Below are positions 53,145-62,080 of a stretch of 64,000 nt of DNA, piece by piece. The first letter of the stretch is position 1. Each line of letters begins with the position of its first letter. Made by a program: the position numbers and the translations under genes. Origin of the DNA: Candidatus Accumulibacter phosphatis (lineage in GTDB: Bacteria > Pseudomonadota > Gammaproteobacteria > Burkholderiales > Rhodocyclaceae). Location: positions 1 to 64,000 of the forward strand of contig NZ_SPMY01000025.1 in assembly GCF_012939955.1 (NCBI RefSeq), written 5' to 3'. The notes under the pieces are model-generated. The model was not told where the DNA came from. It searched no databases and worked only from the letters and a program-made list of their open reading frames with translations.

Positions 53145-54767
53145 TCAGGCCAGACCCTGGCTGGCGAGGTACTCTTCGTAAGTGCCCAGGTAATTGACCA
53201 GCGTGCCGTCGAGGCGAATTTCCAGGATCCGCGTCGCCAGTGACGAGACGAACTCGCGGTCGTGGGAGACGAAAACCAGCGTTCCCTTGAATTTCTCCAG
53301 GGCCGTATTGAGCGACTCGATGGATTCCATATCGAGGTGGTTGGTCGGCTCGTCCATGACCAGCACGTTTGTTTTCATGAGCATCAGCTTGCCGAAAATC
53401 ATGCGCCCCTGCTCGCCCCCGGAGATCACCTTTACTGGCTTGCGCACTTCGTTGCCCGAGAACAGCAGGCGGCCGAGGGTGCCGCGGATCAGCGTTTCGA
53501 GGTCGTCTCCCTCGCTCGCGCTGGCGCGTGCGTAGCCAGCGATCCAGTCGGTCAGGTTGACGCCGCTGTCGAAATCATGGGCATGGTCCTGAGCATAGTA
53601 ACCGAGGCTTGCTTTCTCGGCCCACTTGATGCTACCGCGTTGTGGCTGCAACTCGCCCATCAGCAGCTTCAGCAGCGTCGTCTTGCCGACACCGTTTTCG
53701 CCAATGATTGCCAGCCGGTCGCCGCCGTTGATGCTCAGAGTCAGCTTGTCGAAGATTTTCTGCTTGCTGCCCGGATAGGCGAAGCCAGGTTTTCGATTTC
53801 GACGGCCTGGCGGTGGAGCTTCTCCCGCTCATCGTATTCGAAGCGGATCCAGGGGTACTGTCGCGACGAAGGCTTGACGTCTTCCGGCTTGAGTTTTTCG
53901 ATCAACTTGACGCGTGACGTTGCCTGCTTGGCCTTGGAGGCATTGGCCGAAAAGCGGCGCACGAAATTCTGCAGGTCGGCAATCCGTTCCTTGGCCTTGG
54001 CGTTGGCGTTCTGCTGGCGTTCGCGTGCCTGCGCCGAAGCTTCCATGAAATCGTCGTAATTGCCCGGGTACACGGTGATCTTGCCGTAATCCAGGTCGGC
54101 CATGTGGGTGCACACCTGGTTCAGGAAGTGGCGATCGTGGGAAATGATGATCATCGTGCTGTTGCGGTCGTTGATCACGTTTTCCAGCCAGCGGATGGTG
54201 GCGATGTCGAGGTTGTTGGTCGGTTCGTCGAGGAGCAGGATCTCGGGGTTGGCAAATAGTGCCTGAATCAACAGCACGCGCAGCTTCCAGCCAGGAGCGA
54301 CATCGCTCATCGGACCGAAATGCTGTTCCGCCGGGATGCCGACCCCGAGCAGCAGTTCGCCGGCGCGTGCCTCGGCGGTGTAGCCATCGTATTCGGCAAA
54401 GCGGCCTTCCAGTTCGGCGGCGTGCAGGTAGTCCTCCTCGCTCGCTTCCGGATTGGCGTAGATGGCGTCCTTCTCGACCATGCAGGCCCACATTTCCGCG
54501 TGGCCCATCATCACCACGTCGATTACCCGCTGTTCTTCAAAGGCAAACTGGTCCTGGCGAAGGTAGGCCATCCGCTCGTGCGCGTCTTTTCGAGACGTTG
54601 CCGGCGGTCGCTTCGAGTTCGCCGTCGAGAATCTTCATGAAAGTCGACTTTCCGGAGCCATTGGCGCCGATCAGTCCGTAGCGATAGCCCTCGCCGAACT
54701 TGACCGAGACATTTTCAAAAAGGGGCTTGACCCCGAACTGCATGGTGATGTTGTTGGCAACGAGCAC
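53145..54767 (-). CDS. ABC-F ATPase, YbiT type (two frame breaks)
   Basis: A two-ABC-domain ribosome-associated ATPase. Domain 1 starts [20 protein letters not shown] with GANGSGKST and [11 protein letters not shown]; domain 2 has [21 protein letters not shown] and [14 protein letters not shown]. These words match the YbiT subgroup. Two compensating indels break the frame: an extra A in AAAA near 54588 and a missing T in a T3 tract near 53774-53777. Corrected length is 541 codons, normal for YbiT. GTG 54767 has GAGG eight bases upstream. A repeat copy lies 25 bp upstream of the start, within the probable promoter region. Confidence 0.88.
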
Positions 54768-58103: not shown

Positions 58104-58601
58104 ATGAGTCTTGCGCCCGTATCTGGTCTTCACAACCTCTCCGAGTTTTCCCTCAAGCAACTGGTCGCCTGGGGCGACCACCTCAAGGTTCATCAACCGC
58201 AGATCGACGCGCAGCACGAGGCGATCTTCAATCTCGCGCTGGAAATCGCACACATCTGGCAGGATCATGGCGACCTCGATGAACTGAAGGCGCTCGCCGA
58301 GAAGCTCGACAAGGTGCTGCACGCGCATTTCCGCTACGAGGAGCAACTGCTGGCCGAGATCGGCTATCCCGAACTCGCAGCGCACAAGGCGGAGCATCAG
58401 GTGATGCTCCACGAACTGCAGATCATCCTCGACCGCCTCCACAAATCGCAATCCGGGAGTGTCGTTGGCGAACCCGGACTGGCCTTTCAGAACTATGTGC
58501 TTGGCCTCACGGTCGGGCACATCTTCAACAGCGACATGGATTACTGCCTGTATGCCCGCAAGGCAGCGAGCGATAAGGAACATGTCTGGCCAGGCAAGTA
58601 G
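58104..58601 (+). CDS. Bacteriohemerythrin (second copy)
   Basis: A 165-residue hemerythrin. Ligand-bearing segments are PQIDAQHEAIFNLA, LHAHFRYEEQLLAEIGYPE, LAAHKAEHQVMLHEL and VGHIFNSDMDYCLY. Compared with the copy at 48.2 kb it has a longer N-terminus and helix 3-4 loop. It likely binds O2 on a diiron centre. ATG 58104 follows AAGGGAA and leaves ~17 residues before the domain. Promoter not identified. Confidence 0.92.
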   Translation: MSLAPVSGLHNLSEFSLKQLVAWGDHLKVHQPQIDAQHEAIFNLALEIAHIWQDHGDLDELKALAEKLDKVLHAHFRYEEQLLAEIGYPELAAHKAEHQVMLHELQIILDRLHKSQSGSVVGEPGLAFQNYVLGLTVGHIFNSDMDYCLYARKAASDKEHVWPGK

Positions 58602-58689
58602 ATTCGCGGAAGGCACGCGGTGCCCGCGCGCGTAGCGTAGCGCTGCCGCTTCACCACCTGGCGACGAACTAATCTGTCTTCGCGGCCTG

Positions 58690-58830
58690 CCACTACCAGC
58701 GCGGGCAGGTCGCGGCGAGTCGTTTCAGTTCCTGGCGCGCGGCTCTCGGCTCGGTAGTCGGGGCACAGCCAGGCGACGATTGCCCAGAAGCGTGGGCCGT
58801 GGTCTATGGTGTGCCTTTCGGACCTTGCGA
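58690..58830 (-). pseudogene. Remnant of a YgjP-type metallopeptidase C-terminus
   Basis: On the minus strand ~40 codons read HTIDHGPRFWAIVAWLCPDY followed by RAESR, which parallels the end of YgjP-like peptidases (NHSPEFW...PDYR in the intact gene at 61.3 kb). The upstream HELAH active-site part is not found and the flanks have no homology. The rest of 58602-59152 shows no supported gene. It is an eroded fragment, probably of a different paralogue, since the wording differs from the intact copy. Confidence 0.45.
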
Positions 58831-59152
58831 ACCTCGGACAGGCACGAGAAAACCTGCCCTTCCGCGCACCATGCCTACCCGGCGTGCCTGACGCGGACGC
58901 ATCACGACCTCGATTGGACAGCCGCTGCCTACGACGGCAGCGACTACACCACTCTACGATGGTCGACCAACAAAGCCTCTGCCGGTCGCTTGGCGCGACC
59001 TTGACGAGTGGCTTCGGCACGGCGACGAATGAAAGCAGCGGCTGGTGAGGCAGGCGATTAGAATGCGCATGTCGGCACTCCGGTCGACGGCTGCGGTCCC
59101 TTGGGTTCGGGCCTGGCAAGGCGGATCGAACTTGTTGGAAAGGCGCAATTCC

Positions 59153-61195
59153 ATGTTCTCGCTCTCATCTCTTGGCGACAAGTTCATTAGCGATTCGTCA
59201 CCTTACAGCGATCCCGCAGCGGCGGCCCGGCGCATCAATCGGCGACGACTGCGCGTATTCCTCATTGTCTTCACCTTGAGCTTGCTGCCCGGACTGGCCT
59301 GGAATCTGCTCCGTTCGCCCGAATACCGGGCGACTGCACGCGTGCAAATTTCATCCGGCGCGGTGGCTGCCCAGACGGTAGCGAGCAGCGCTGGTTGGAA
59401 CGCGGAGCTGCGGCCTGCGCAGCCGATCGACGTGCTCACGCAGGCCCAGGTCCTCACCAGTCGCCCCCTTTTCGAGGAGGTCTCTCGCCGCTTGCTCAAA
59501 GACGGTCACGATGACCCCTTCGTGGGCGTCGATGCTGCACTTGCCCTGCAGAACGCGGTCACCGCCACCCCAATCCTGGGGACGGATATCGTCGAATTGC
59601 AGGCTACCGGGGCTTCGCCGCAACTGCTGACGAAAGTCGTCAATACGCTGATCGAAACCTATCATGAGCAGTCATTGACGACGCACAGCAATGCCTCCGA
59701 CGAAGCCATTGTCAATCTACGCGACGAAGTCGAGCGACTCGGCGACAGCATGGCCGAAAAACGCGCCCAATTGGCGGCCTTCCGGGAAACAAGCGGCGTC
59801 GTTTCGTCCGAACGTAGTGAAAATCAGGCCTTGGTGCGGATCAAAGGCCTCTCCGAGTCACTCAACAAGGCAAACGAGGATTTCGCAAAAGCCGATGCCC
59901 GGCTGCGCACCCTGCGCGAATCCGCGGCTAGCGGCCGCAGTCCCGTTCTTGCCAAAGACAACCCGACGCTGGCTTCGATAGAGCACCGCGTTTCTGTGAC
60001 CCGCGAGCAACTGCGGGATATGGAACGTAGCTATACGCCTGCGTTCATGGCCATGGACCCGACGGCGCGAGCCCTGCGCGCGCGCCTGAGCGAACTCGAA
60101 CAACAGTTGCTGAGCAGCCGCTCGGCCAGTCAGCAGGCGGCGCTGGCGAACGCCGAAGAAGACGCGGCGGGAGCTAGTGCGACGGTCGAACGCTTACGCG
60201 GCCAGCTCGACGAGCAACGGCGAACAGCGCAGGTGGCTGCCGCGAACTTCCAGGAAGCCAAGGCGATGGAAGACGATCTGGTGCGGCTCGAAGGAGCGCG
60301 ACGCAATGCCAGCGAACGCCTGGCCAAGCTCGAAGCGACTGAAAACACCCGCCAGCCAAAGCTGACGCTGATCGAGTCCGCCAGTGTGCCCGAGAAACCA
60401 TGGCGCCCCGACTATCTGCGCGATGGCCTGATCAACCTGGCCGCGTCCTTTTCGCTCGGCTTGCTGGCCATGTGGTTCGTCGAACTGTTCAATCGTTCGC
60501 CAGCGCCAGCAGCGCTCGGGACGACCACGGTCGTCGTCTCCCAGCCTTCACCGACCCCGAGTGTCGAAGCGCCGAAACCACTCCCCGGCTTGACCTACGA
60601 TGCCGCTTGCCGAGTCCTTCCACAACTGCCAACGGCGGCGAGCGTCGGCCGCGAACTGACTCAGGACGAGCTTGCCGCTCTGCTGGCTGCCGCCGACGGC
60701 GAGGCGCGTTTGCTGTGCGCGACGCTGCTTCTTGGGCTGACGCTAGATGAGCTCAGGGAACTGGCGGTCAAGGATGTCGACGGCGCGAGCTCGCACCTGA
60801 GCGTGCGTGGCGCCTGGGCAAGGACACTGGCGATGCCTGGCTGGCTGGCGCAGACACTGGAGAAACATGGCGGCGAAGACCCAGACAAGTTACTGTTCTG
60901 CGCTTCATCAGGGCAGCAACTTGCGGCATCCGAGATCATCTCCCGGATCACTTGCGCCGCGCTGGATGCTGGGCTGGACGCCGCCGCATCGGTATCGCCA
61001 GCAGCCTTGCGGCACACGTACATCATCAACCTGATCAATCAGAACGTGCGTTTCTCGGATCTTGGGCCCCTCGTCGGACGTCTGAGCAGCGAAGAGCTTG
61101 CGTCATACGCAGCCGTCAGTTCGGGGCCACGGCAAGTTCGCGGCGCTGACGTTGATACCATCATGCCGGCCTTGCGGAGCGCAGAAACGACTTGA
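59153..61195 (+). CDS. Wzz/GumC-type polysaccharide co-polymerase with tyrosine-recombinase-like C-terminus
   Basis: A 680-residue inner-membrane protein. TM1 is at ~33-52, followed by a periplasmic region with Wzz text (YRATARVQISS) and long coiled coils (~190-400). The GNVR-like KLEATENTRQPKLTLIESAS and PEKPWRPDYLR lead to TM2 at ~426-446. This is the layout of chain-length regulators of exopolysaccharide export. After a Pro/Thr linker, residues ~500-660 resemble a tyrosine recombinase catalytic domain: ELTQDELAALLAAADG, LLGLTLDELRELAVKDVD, LLFCASSG, SPAALRHTYIINLINQ and Tyr652. The first Arg, the Lys, the first box-II His and the LGH His are replaced; Arg620 and Tyr652 remain. Recombination is therefore unlikely. 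ATG 59153 is directly before the conserved start. Confidence 0.82.
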   Translation: MFSLSSLGDKFISDSSPYSDPAAAARRINRRRLRVFLIVFTLSLLPGLAWNLLRSPEYRATARVQISSGAVAAQTVASSAGWNAELRPAQPIDVLTQAQVLTSRPLFEEVSRRLLKDGHDDPFVGVDAALALQNAVTATPILGTDIVELQATGASPQLLTKVVNTLIETYHEQSLTTHSNASDEAIVNLRDEVERLGDSMAEKRAQLAAFRETSGVVSSERSENQALVRIKGLSESLNKANEDFAKADARLRTLRESAASGRSPVLAKDNPTLASIEHRVSVTREQLRDMERSYTPAFMAMDPTARALRARLSELEQQLLSSRSASQQAALANAEEDAAGASATVERLRGQLDEQRRTAQVAAANFQEAKAMEDDLVRLEGARRNASERLAKLEATENTRQPKLTLIESASVPEKPWRPDYLRDGLINLAASFSLGLLAMWFVELFNRSPAPAALGTTTVVVSQPSPTPSVEAPKPLPGLTYDAACRVLPQLPTAASVGRELTQDELAALLAAADGEARLLCATLLLGLTLDELRELAVKDVDGASSHLSVRGAWARTLAMPGWLAQTLEKHGGEDPDKLLFCASSGQQLAASEIISRITCAALDAGLDAAASVSPAALRHTYIINLINQNVRFSDLGPLVGRLSSEELASYAAVSSGPRQVRGADVDTIMPALRSAETT

Positions 61196-61309
61196 CCGAG
61201 ATGCCGAGGAGTAACGGTCTGTGCCGCCGAGCAGGCACCGCCGGCCGGCCCGGCCATCGCTACTGCGACCTTTGGCAAGCACGGCATGCTCCCGCCGGCA
61301 AACCACCTG

Positions 61310-62080
61310 CTAAAACCGTGCAAGACCCTTTGACACCTCGCGGAGTTCGGCACGCAAGTCCCTGTAATCAGGAACTATTGCACCAAGGATGCGCCAAAAC
61401 TCCGGGCTGTGGTTCATCTCGCGCAGGTGCGCGAGTTCGTGCGCCACGACGTAGTCGATGACTGTTGGCGGGAAATGAATCAGCCGCCAGTTGAGGTGAA
61501 TGCCGCTGCGCAGGCTGCAACTTCCCCAGCGCGTTCGCGCTGACGACAGCGACAGCCGTGGCAGCGTCACGCCGAGCAGCGGCGCGTAGTGGGCGAGGCG
61601 CTCGGCGAACAGCTCGCGGGCCTTTTCGCGCAGTGCTTTCTCGAGCACGCGTGCAGCTTCTGTCGGTGCGCGCAGGCATAGGGTGAGTGTCGGCTCGGTC
61701 GCCTGCAGGTTCCAGACGCCGCGATTGGCGCCGAGCGCGAGACGGATGCGCAGCGGCTTGCCGAGCACTGGTAGCTGCAGCCCGTCAGTGATCTGCAGCA
61801 CTTCGGGCGCTCGCCGCGTGGACCATTCGTCGAGTTTCTCGCCGATCCACTGACCATGCTGCAGGAGCATGCTTTCGACCTCGCGCAGCGAGGCACGGCG
61901 CGGTGCGCCGACGCGCAGGCCGCGGTGGTCGATGGTCAATCCGATGGTGCGCCGGCTGGCCCGGCGCAAGACATAGGCAACCGTGCGCTCGCCCAGTTCG
62001 ATGCTGCGGGCTGTTTCCCCAGCGGGTAGCGCAGGCAGTGAAGGCTCGCCGGGAGAGGCCGCGTCAGGCAGCCACGACAT
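61310..62080 (-). CDS. YgjP-like metallopeptidase (M48 / SprT-like)
   Basis: A 256-residue predicted zinc peptidase. The active site is VAHELAHLREMNHSPEFW, giving HExxH plus a third ligand His. Upstream text is YVLRRASRRTIGLTIDHRGLRV, typical of YgjP (DUF45). The cellular substrate is unknown. It is the last gene of a glyS-gmhB-plsC-ygjP run; its start overlaps the plsC 3' end by 17 bases. ATG 62080 gives a slightly longer N-terminus than E. coli YgjP. Confidence 0.88.
   Translation of the reverse strand: MSWLPDAASPGEPSLPALPAGETARSIELGERTVAYVLRRASRRTIGLTIDHRGLRVGAPRRASLREVESMLLQHGQWIGEKLDEWSTRRAPEVLQITDGLQLPVLGKPLRIRLALGANRGVWNLQATEPTLTLCLRAPTEAARVLEKALREKARELFAERLAHYAPLLGVTLPRLSLSSARTRWGSCSLRSGIHLNWRLIHFPPTVIDYVVAHELAHLREMNHSPEFWRILGAIVPDYRDLRAELREVSKGLARF

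What the first reader, a model, noticed from the sequence alone, without database searches (positions are those of the whole stretch)
59153..61195. Polysaccharide co-polymerase fused to an apparently dead tyrosine-recombinase-like domain
Seen: a Wzz/GumC architecture (TM1, coiled coil, TM2) with a ~180-residue cytoplasmic tail in place of the usual short tail or BY-kinase. The tail follows the order of a tyrosine recombinase domain: LTQDELAALL, LGLTLDELRELAVKDVD, a beta region ending in AMPGWL, LLFCASSG, AALRHTYIINLI, LVGR and a final Tyr652. Known: active recombinases need R-K-H-R-H/W-Y. Here the first Arg is Thr, the Lys position is not Lys, the box-II His is Ala and the LGH His is Arg; only Arg620 and Tyr652 remain. 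Inference: a recombinase fold reused as a protein- or DNA-binding, or tyrosine-phosphorylated, regulatory module for exopolysaccharide export. I do not recall a described system of this kind.
Basis: partly seen in the sequence, partly recalled or inferred. Interest (0 to 1): 0.82.

Follow-up and report, generated by a model that had tools for sequence, protein, structure and literature searches.

The report
Sugar-export protein with dead recombinase tail
Some environmental bacteria carry a membrane protein of the kind that controls surface-sugar chains, whose inner end is a DNA-cutting enzyme fold that has lost its cutting residues and its DNA-friendly charge, so it probably now serves as a protein-docking part.

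Summary
Window 59153-61195 (+) encodes a 680-residue protein: a Wzz/Wzc-type polysaccharide co-polymerase (PCP) followed by a disordered linker and a tyrosine-recombinase catalytic fold (Pfam Phage_integrase above cut-off; tail model pLDDT 90.9, closest to XerA). It is no assembly join: 41 other aligned relatives, some on single-contig genomes, carry the same fusion (Candidatus Accumulibacter, Zoogloea, Azonexus, Aromatoleum, Thiodictyon and others). Of these 42, none has the box-I Arg or box-II His and 2 have the box-III His; Arg620 stays in 39 and Tyr652 in 35, and one clade lost both. Tail and PCP part evolve in step; the tail is under purifying selection in 9 of 9 pairs. New: 42 of 42 tails are net negative, against +4 to +11 for eight intact recombinase domains, and no core-binding domain is present. 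DNA binding is therefore unlikely; a protein-docking or ring-forming module standing where Wzc has its kinase is likeliest (inferred). Polysaccharide genes were recognised nearby in 3 of 31 neighbourhoods; the genome has three other PCP loci in apparent polysaccharide clusters. No description was seen in the papers listed by my searches.

The parts
59153..61195 (+). whole gene, 680 aa plus stop: polysaccharide co-polymerase fused to a catalytically dead tyrosine-recombinase fold
   Evidence: open frame and translation; conserved full-length relatives
59213..59311 (+). residues 21-53, long N-terminal helix taken to hold TM1 (no TM predictor was run)
   Evidence: full-length AlphaFold model; Wzz Pfam match 30-113, 19.9 bits, below its cut-off of 25.5
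59321..60376 (+). residues 57-408, part taken as periplasmic: alpha/beta base and long helices (156-395)
   Evidence: model; profile matches to PslE and Wzc; Foldseek Wzc, WzzE, KpsE
60413..60493 (+). residues 421-447, helix taken as TM2 (no TM predictor was run)
   Evidence: model
60506..60643 (+). residues 452-497, disordered variable linker
   Evidence: pLDDT under 50; dN/dS higher than in both flanking domains in 6 of 9 pairs
60653..61108 (+). residues 501-652, recombinase catalytic-core fold, ending at the former nucleophile position Tyr652
   Evidence: Pfam PF00589 501-655; PDB profile search; model and fold search
61010..61012 (+). Arg620, box-II Arg, kept in 39 of 42 aligned sequences
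61148..61180 (+). residues 666-676, conserved C-terminal segment, roughly (I/V)D..(M/Y/H)P.L, with P672 in 41 of 42
   Evidence: short helix 672-679 in the model

Best explanation
This is a PCP-2-like polysaccharide co-polymerase in which the cytoplasmic position held in Wzc by the BY-kinase is held by a domesticated XerA/integron-integrase-like catalytic domain that can no longer cut DNA. Shown: architecture, fold, loss of catalytic residues, purifying selection, net acidic charge, no core-binding domain, and the tails grouping together against eight control recombinases. Inferred: the domain is a protein-protein module. Most likely the recombinase fold holds PCP subunits together, or docks a cytoplasmic partner of polysaccharide synthesis, using the old active-site cleft and helix groove together with its own conserved C-terminal segment. 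This would parallel the Wzc tail in the neighbouring kinase and the recombinase alpha-N helix in the neighbouring subunit, and would set PCP assembly without phosphorylation.
For: Fold. PCP half. Dead site: box-I Arg 0 of 42, box-II His 0 of 42, box-III His 2 of 42, while eight control recombinase domains keep these, the box-II Arg and the Tyr 8 of 8. One side of a branch against the controls, SH-aLRT 100; PCP and tail pairwise identities correlate at r = 0.91 over 861 pairs. dN/dS of the tail 0.08-0.39 in 9 of 9 pairs. Net charge of the tail -12 to -1 in 42 of 42, controls +4 to +11. Pro672 in 41 of 42. Parallels, passages read: Wzc octamer held by the tail in the neighbour's kinase site (PMC8285477); proposed phosphorylation-independent pseudokinase partner of a PCP (PMC12004946); alpha-N helix packing in cis or trans in one groove (PMC3646895).
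Against: No oligomer was modelled and no partner was found. Polysaccharide genes were recognised near it in only 3 of 31 neighbourhoods, and XrtA presence does not separate carriers from non-carriers. The Pfam Wzz model is not reached above its cut-off in any of ten members scanned. Arg620 (39 of 42), Tyr652 (35 of 42) and the His after Arg620 (36 of 42) stay conserved more than a free scaffold would need, so some old active-site function (ligand or phosphate binding, or structure) may persist. Net charge of a domain does not exclude a local basic patch, and the eight controls are few and were chosen by me.
Confidence: 0.6

Rival explanations
1. The tail is a membrane-anchored DNA-binding regulator, like the dead recombinase repressor MrpR, tying PCP state to gene expression or to the chromosome.
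For: A dead recombinase fold is known to work as a repressor: MrpR (PMC10516654, passages, abstract included); MrpR and YopR are among the fold matches (5.7e-3 and 3.2e-3).
Against: 42 of 42 tails are net acidic while eight intact catalytic domains are basic; the core-binding domain that MrpR has is absent, the linker before the tail being about 45 disordered residues.
Confidence: 0.1
2. The tail binds a small ligand or phosphate-bearing molecule (nucleotide, nucleotide sugar, lipid-linked sugar) in the remodelled active-site pocket and gates the PCP.
For: Arg620 39 of 42, R557 41 of 42, E533 41 of 42 and the His after Arg620 36 of 42 are kept although catalysis is lost.
Against: The E533 position is Glu in 8 of 8 and the R557 position Arg in 6 of 8 control recombinases, so they may be structural; L074-L076 have lost Arg620 and Tyr652; no ligand known.
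Confidence: 0.15
3. The protein is no longer a polysaccharide co-polymerase; the PCP scaffold has been reused for another envelope task, with the tail as docking part.
For: 28 of 31 neighbourhoods have no recognised polysaccharide genes; the window's genome has three other PCP loci, in apparent polysaccharide clusters; scores lie far below the cut-offs of the PCP equivalog models.
Against: Next to a Wzx-type flippase gene in L071, inside a nucleotide-sugar cluster in L074 and before a family-2 glycosyltransferase gene in L125; N-terminal half well kept over its whole length.
Confidence: 0.15

Closest known systems
Wzc-type PCP-2a co-polymerase with BY-kinase domain
   Same: N-terminal helix, alpha/beta part, long helices, second membrane helix, folded C-terminal domain; profile and fold matches (the full-model fold match to Wzc has E 6.1e-9 but TM-score only 0.29)
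   Different: recombinase fold instead of the kinase; no Tyr-rich end
PslE of Pseudomonas (PDB 9v6l, 9v75)
   Same: best PCP match in the PDB by profile (1.9e-9 for the whole sequence, 7.2e-5 for its better stretch); similar length, with about 180 residues after the matched region
   Different: the tail profile does not match PslE at E up to 10; the fold of the PslE tail could not be compared here
EpsV-EcpK and HfsA-HfsB (PCP with pseudokinase partner)
   Same: dead enzyme fold proposed to assist a PCP without phosphorylation (PMC12004946, passages)
   Different: separate protein and kinase fold there; fused and recombinase fold here
MrpR/YopR, dead tyrosine recombinase repressor
   Same: recombinase fold without the full catalytic set; fold match
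   Different: two-domain DNA binder there; here acidic, fused to a membrane protein, no core-binding domain
XerA and integron integrases
   Same: nearest sequence and fold relatives of the tail
   Different: active enzymes with the full RKHRH-Y set

Membership tests
polysaccharide co-polymerase (PCP) | Wzz-type N-terminal region with two TM helices flanking a periplasmic domain | tested here: met
   model helices 21-53 and 421-447 (no TM predictor run); PDB profile PslE, Wzc; fold Wzc, WzzE. Against: Pfam Wzz above its cut-off in 0 of 10 members scanned
polysaccharide co-polymerase (PCP) | ring-like oligomer that acts with Wzy/Wzx/Wza | not testable with these tools
XrtA or EpsF PCP equivalogs (TIGR03007, TIGR03017) | score above the curated cut-off | tested here: not met
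   65.7 of 278.85 and 49.1 of 422.75 bits
PCP-2a with BY-kinase | BY-kinase domain and Tyr-rich C-terminus | tested here: not met
   no kinase domain in Pfam; NCBIfam kinase models match only residues 143-238; 29 of 42 have no Tyr from position 655 on, 7 have one, 5 two, 1 four
tyrosine recombinase superfamily | catalytic-domain fold | tested here: met
tyrosine recombinase, active | R-K-H-R-H/W-Y catalytic set | tested here: not met
   box-I Arg 0 of 42, box-II His 0 of 42, box-III His 2 of 42, Arg620 39 of 42, Tyr652 35 of 42; the Lys position was read by eye in the alignment
tyrosine recombinase, active | N-terminal core-binding domain | tested here: not met
   residues 452-497 disordered, nothing else between the second membrane helix and the catalytic fold
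MrpR-type DNA-binding pseudo-recombinase | DNA binding (basic surface) | tested here: inconclusive
   net charge negative in 42 of 42, which speaks against it; no binding assay or surface map

The most novel reading that the evidence does not exclude
A third kind of PCP cytoplasmic regulator: a domesticated site-specific recombinase whose subunit-to-subunit C-terminal exchange, once used to hold recombination complexes on DNA, now closes and opens a PCP ring at the membrane without DNA, ATP or phosphorylation.
Probability: 0.25. Interest if true: 0.82.

Novelty: new variant of a known kind. Interest (0 to 1): 0.62.

Why it matters
PCPs set the length and export of bacterial surface sugars; the known switch on their cytoplasmic side is the BY-kinase or its pseudokinase kin (PMC12004946, passages). 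A conserved branch with a dead recombinase there would be an independent solution, testable by deleting the tail. It would also be a case of a tyrosine-recombinase fold kept for a role that is apparently not on DNA. Carriers include Zoogloea and Candidatus Accumulibacter, bacteria of activated-sludge flocs and granules (recalled), where matrix formation is of practical interest.

Tried and rejected
Assembly join: rejected, the fusion recurs in other assemblies, single-contig genomes G010, G051 and G1264 among them. Pseudogene tail: rejected, dN/dS under 0.4 in 9 of 9 pairs. Plasmid-borne gene: no match in the 72,556 plasmid records at E 1e-5. Link to the XrtA system: 23 of 24 carriers and 23 of 26 non-carriers picked by hand have an XrtA match (above the cut-off 23 of 24 and 22 of 26), so no discrimination. 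RNA element in 58400-61500: one match to a snoRNA family, 17.7 bits against a gathering score of 39, taken as chance. Promoter and terminator scan of 58550-61500: one of each, both in line with shuffles. PslE tail: the tail profile does not match PslE at E up to 10; a PslE fragment found no homologue in 369 genomes at 1e-20 or in the plasmids, so its tail stays uncompared.

Rows dropped before the 42-row counts: L046, L058 and L061 (incomplete or without a tail on the contig), L062-L065 (copies of other rows), L131 (copy of L038). Loci beyond those fetched again were not aligned. The 34-row counts are an earlier subset. The eight controls were chosen from the recombinase-like frames listed; weaker or repeated ones there were not used. 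L127 is a long-branch row and is the one without R557 and P672. Three profile matches run past a stop codon (G099; G1280 and G1329); for G099 and G1280 the frame ends at the C-terminus of the protein, for G1329 this was not looked at.

Full report
Observation. The frame 59153-61195 (+) gives 680 residues. Pfam finds Phage_integrase at residues 501-655 (E 6.9e-8, above cut-off) and a sub-threshold Wzz match at 30-113; NCBIfam finds the XrtA and EpsF chain-length families (below their cut-offs) in the N-terminal half and XerA/XerC/XerD-type recombinases (also below their cut-offs) in the tail.

Fold. A profile of 23 tails matches XerA at 5.1e-13 in the PDB. The tail model (pLDDT 90.9, pTM 0.86) is closest to XerA (E 4.2e-7, probability 1.00, TM 0.65, rmsd 6.1), then Xer, integron, lambda, P2 and Cre recombinases, and lower the dead relatives MrpR and YopR. 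The full model (pLDDT 81.0, pTM 0.41) shows an N-terminal helix 21-53, long helices 156-395, a helix 421-447, a disordered linker 452-497, then the tail; its best fold match is Wzc (E 6.1e-9, TM 0.29). At pTM 0.41 the arrangement of the domains in the model is not to be trusted. TM1 and TM2 are assigned from the model and from kinship with PCPs; no TM predictor was run.

Distribution. Matches over the whole fusion: 8 of 61 near genomes, the window's own included, 6 of the 28 of its genus among them; 10 of 399 genomes of the order, own included and one of them cut by a contig end (14 genomes rang at 1e-20, of which four matched only the PCP part); 22 of 297 of the family; 6 of 369 of the class and 3 of 398 of the phylum, the last two each including the window's own genome and G051. 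These sets overlap. A scan of named genomes gave 25 loci, three of them partial (L046, L058, L061): Zoogloea, Candidatus Accumulibacter, Azonexus, Rubrivivax, Aromatoleum, Thiobacillaceae, Rhodocyclaceae, two MAGs labelled Alphaproteobacteria, Thiodictyon. Of nine further homologues scanned, Phage_integrase was reported at E up to 0.1 in eight, above its cut-off in three (L007, L025, L026); L029 had none. The distribution is patchy. The window's tail groups with Accumulibacter ACC003 and an Azonexus, while four other Accumulibacter-genus tails lie near Zoogloea, which suggests transfer or old duplication (inference).

Death of the active site. Over 42 aligned sequences, the window included: box-I Arg 0, box-II His 0, box-III His 2, Arg620 39, Tyr652 35, E533 41, R557 41, His621 36. 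In eight control domains (seven from the window's genome, one from G019 of the same genus) box-I Arg, box-II His, box-II Arg, box-III His and Tyr are each present 8 of 8. L074-L076 have lost both Arg620 and Tyr652.

Selection and origin. dN/dS (NG86, own script) in nine pairs: tail 0.08-0.39, PCP part 0.03-0.22, linker 0.08-1.23. Tails form one side of a branch against the eight controls with SH-aLRT 100 (quick tree, midpoint root), and PCP and tail identities correlate at 0.91 over 861 pairs: most simply one fusion, inherited as a unit. A wider set of recombinases could still break up the group.

Charge. Net charge of the tail is -12 to -1, none positive in 42; the median pI is 4.9 over the first 34. 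Controls are +4 to +11, pI 8.97-10.57. With no core-binding domain this makes a DNA role unlikely. The control set is small and near in kinship.

Surroundings. In the window the gene stands alone, with a hemerythrin-like gene upstream on the same strand and a YgjP-like metallopeptidase gene downstream on the other strand; these and most other neighbour names were read by eye from sequence. Of 31 neighbourhoods looked at (22, nine; L131 is a copy of L038, and L128 is nearly L053; flanks 4.5-9.5 kb where the contig allowed, genes called by an own script), three have recognised polysaccharide genes close by: L071 (Wzx-type flippase next), L074 (ManC, UDP-sugar dehydrogenase, epimerase, DegT) and L125 (family-2 glycosyltransferase next); these genes were confirmed by Pfam. 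Other fetched loci (for example L072, L075, L076 and most Zoogloea) were not read in this way. The window's genome has three other Wzz-family loci above the cut-off, on C20, C40 and C17, in what look by eye like polysaccharide clusters.

Mechanism. Shown: fusion, fold, dead site, selection, acidity. Inferred: docking or ring formation. The C-terminal segment is a family signature (P672 41 of 42) and falls roughly where recombinases carry the alpha-N helix that packs in cis or trans into one groove (PMC3646895, passages); that the two correspond is my inference. Wzc rings are held by a C-terminal tail in the neighbour's kinase site (PMC8285477, passages). A pseudokinase is proposed to guide a PCP without phosphorylation (PMC12004946, passages). 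I therefore put a protein-docking or ring module at 0.6.

Literature. Searches in open PMC papers: PCP with tyrosine recombinase, 0 papers; Wzz with phage integrase and fused, 0; GumC with integrase domain, 0; Accumulibacter with chain length determinant and exopolysaccharide, 1, on another subject; two of Wzz, tyrosine recombinase, domain architecture, 96, of which ten were listed; three of chain length determinant, integrase, fusion protein, Zoogloea, 1, on another subject; two of PslE, PCP, C-terminal domain, 31, of which twelve were listed. None of the listed papers, from title and start of abstract, describes this fusion; the unlisted ones were not seen, and subscription papers and preprints were not searched. 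Passages only were read of PMC6813494 (it does not describe the PslE tail in the passages shown), PMC10516654 and PMC8138268 (one passage, on the catalytic residues).

Noticed in passing
window 53145-54767 (-): An ABC-F-like gene appears in several pieces in different frames (with one piece at L062 5387-5614): pseudogene or assembly indels.
   Followed up: no
G000 C40:9533-11027 (-) and C17:108367-109717 (+): Two of the three other PCP genes of this genome are split between two frames, while the fusion gene is intact.
   Followed up: partly
L045:14121-15128 (+): Zoogloea LCSB751 carries a second, shorter PCP-like ORF (336 aa, 116 bits to the family profile) downstream of the fusion gene.
   Followed up: no
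L057:12068-16107 and L060:12336-16577: In two genomes the fusion gene is followed by signalling genes: response regulator, FecR-LysM and CHASE2 proteins in L057; a CHASE2-protein kinase (Pfam), then genes that look by eye like a PP2C phosphatase and an FHA protein, in L060.
   Followed up: partly
PDB 9v6l, 9v75 (PslE): PslE, the nearest PCP in the PDB by profile, also has about 180 residues after the matched region; their fold could not be compared here.
   Followed up: partly
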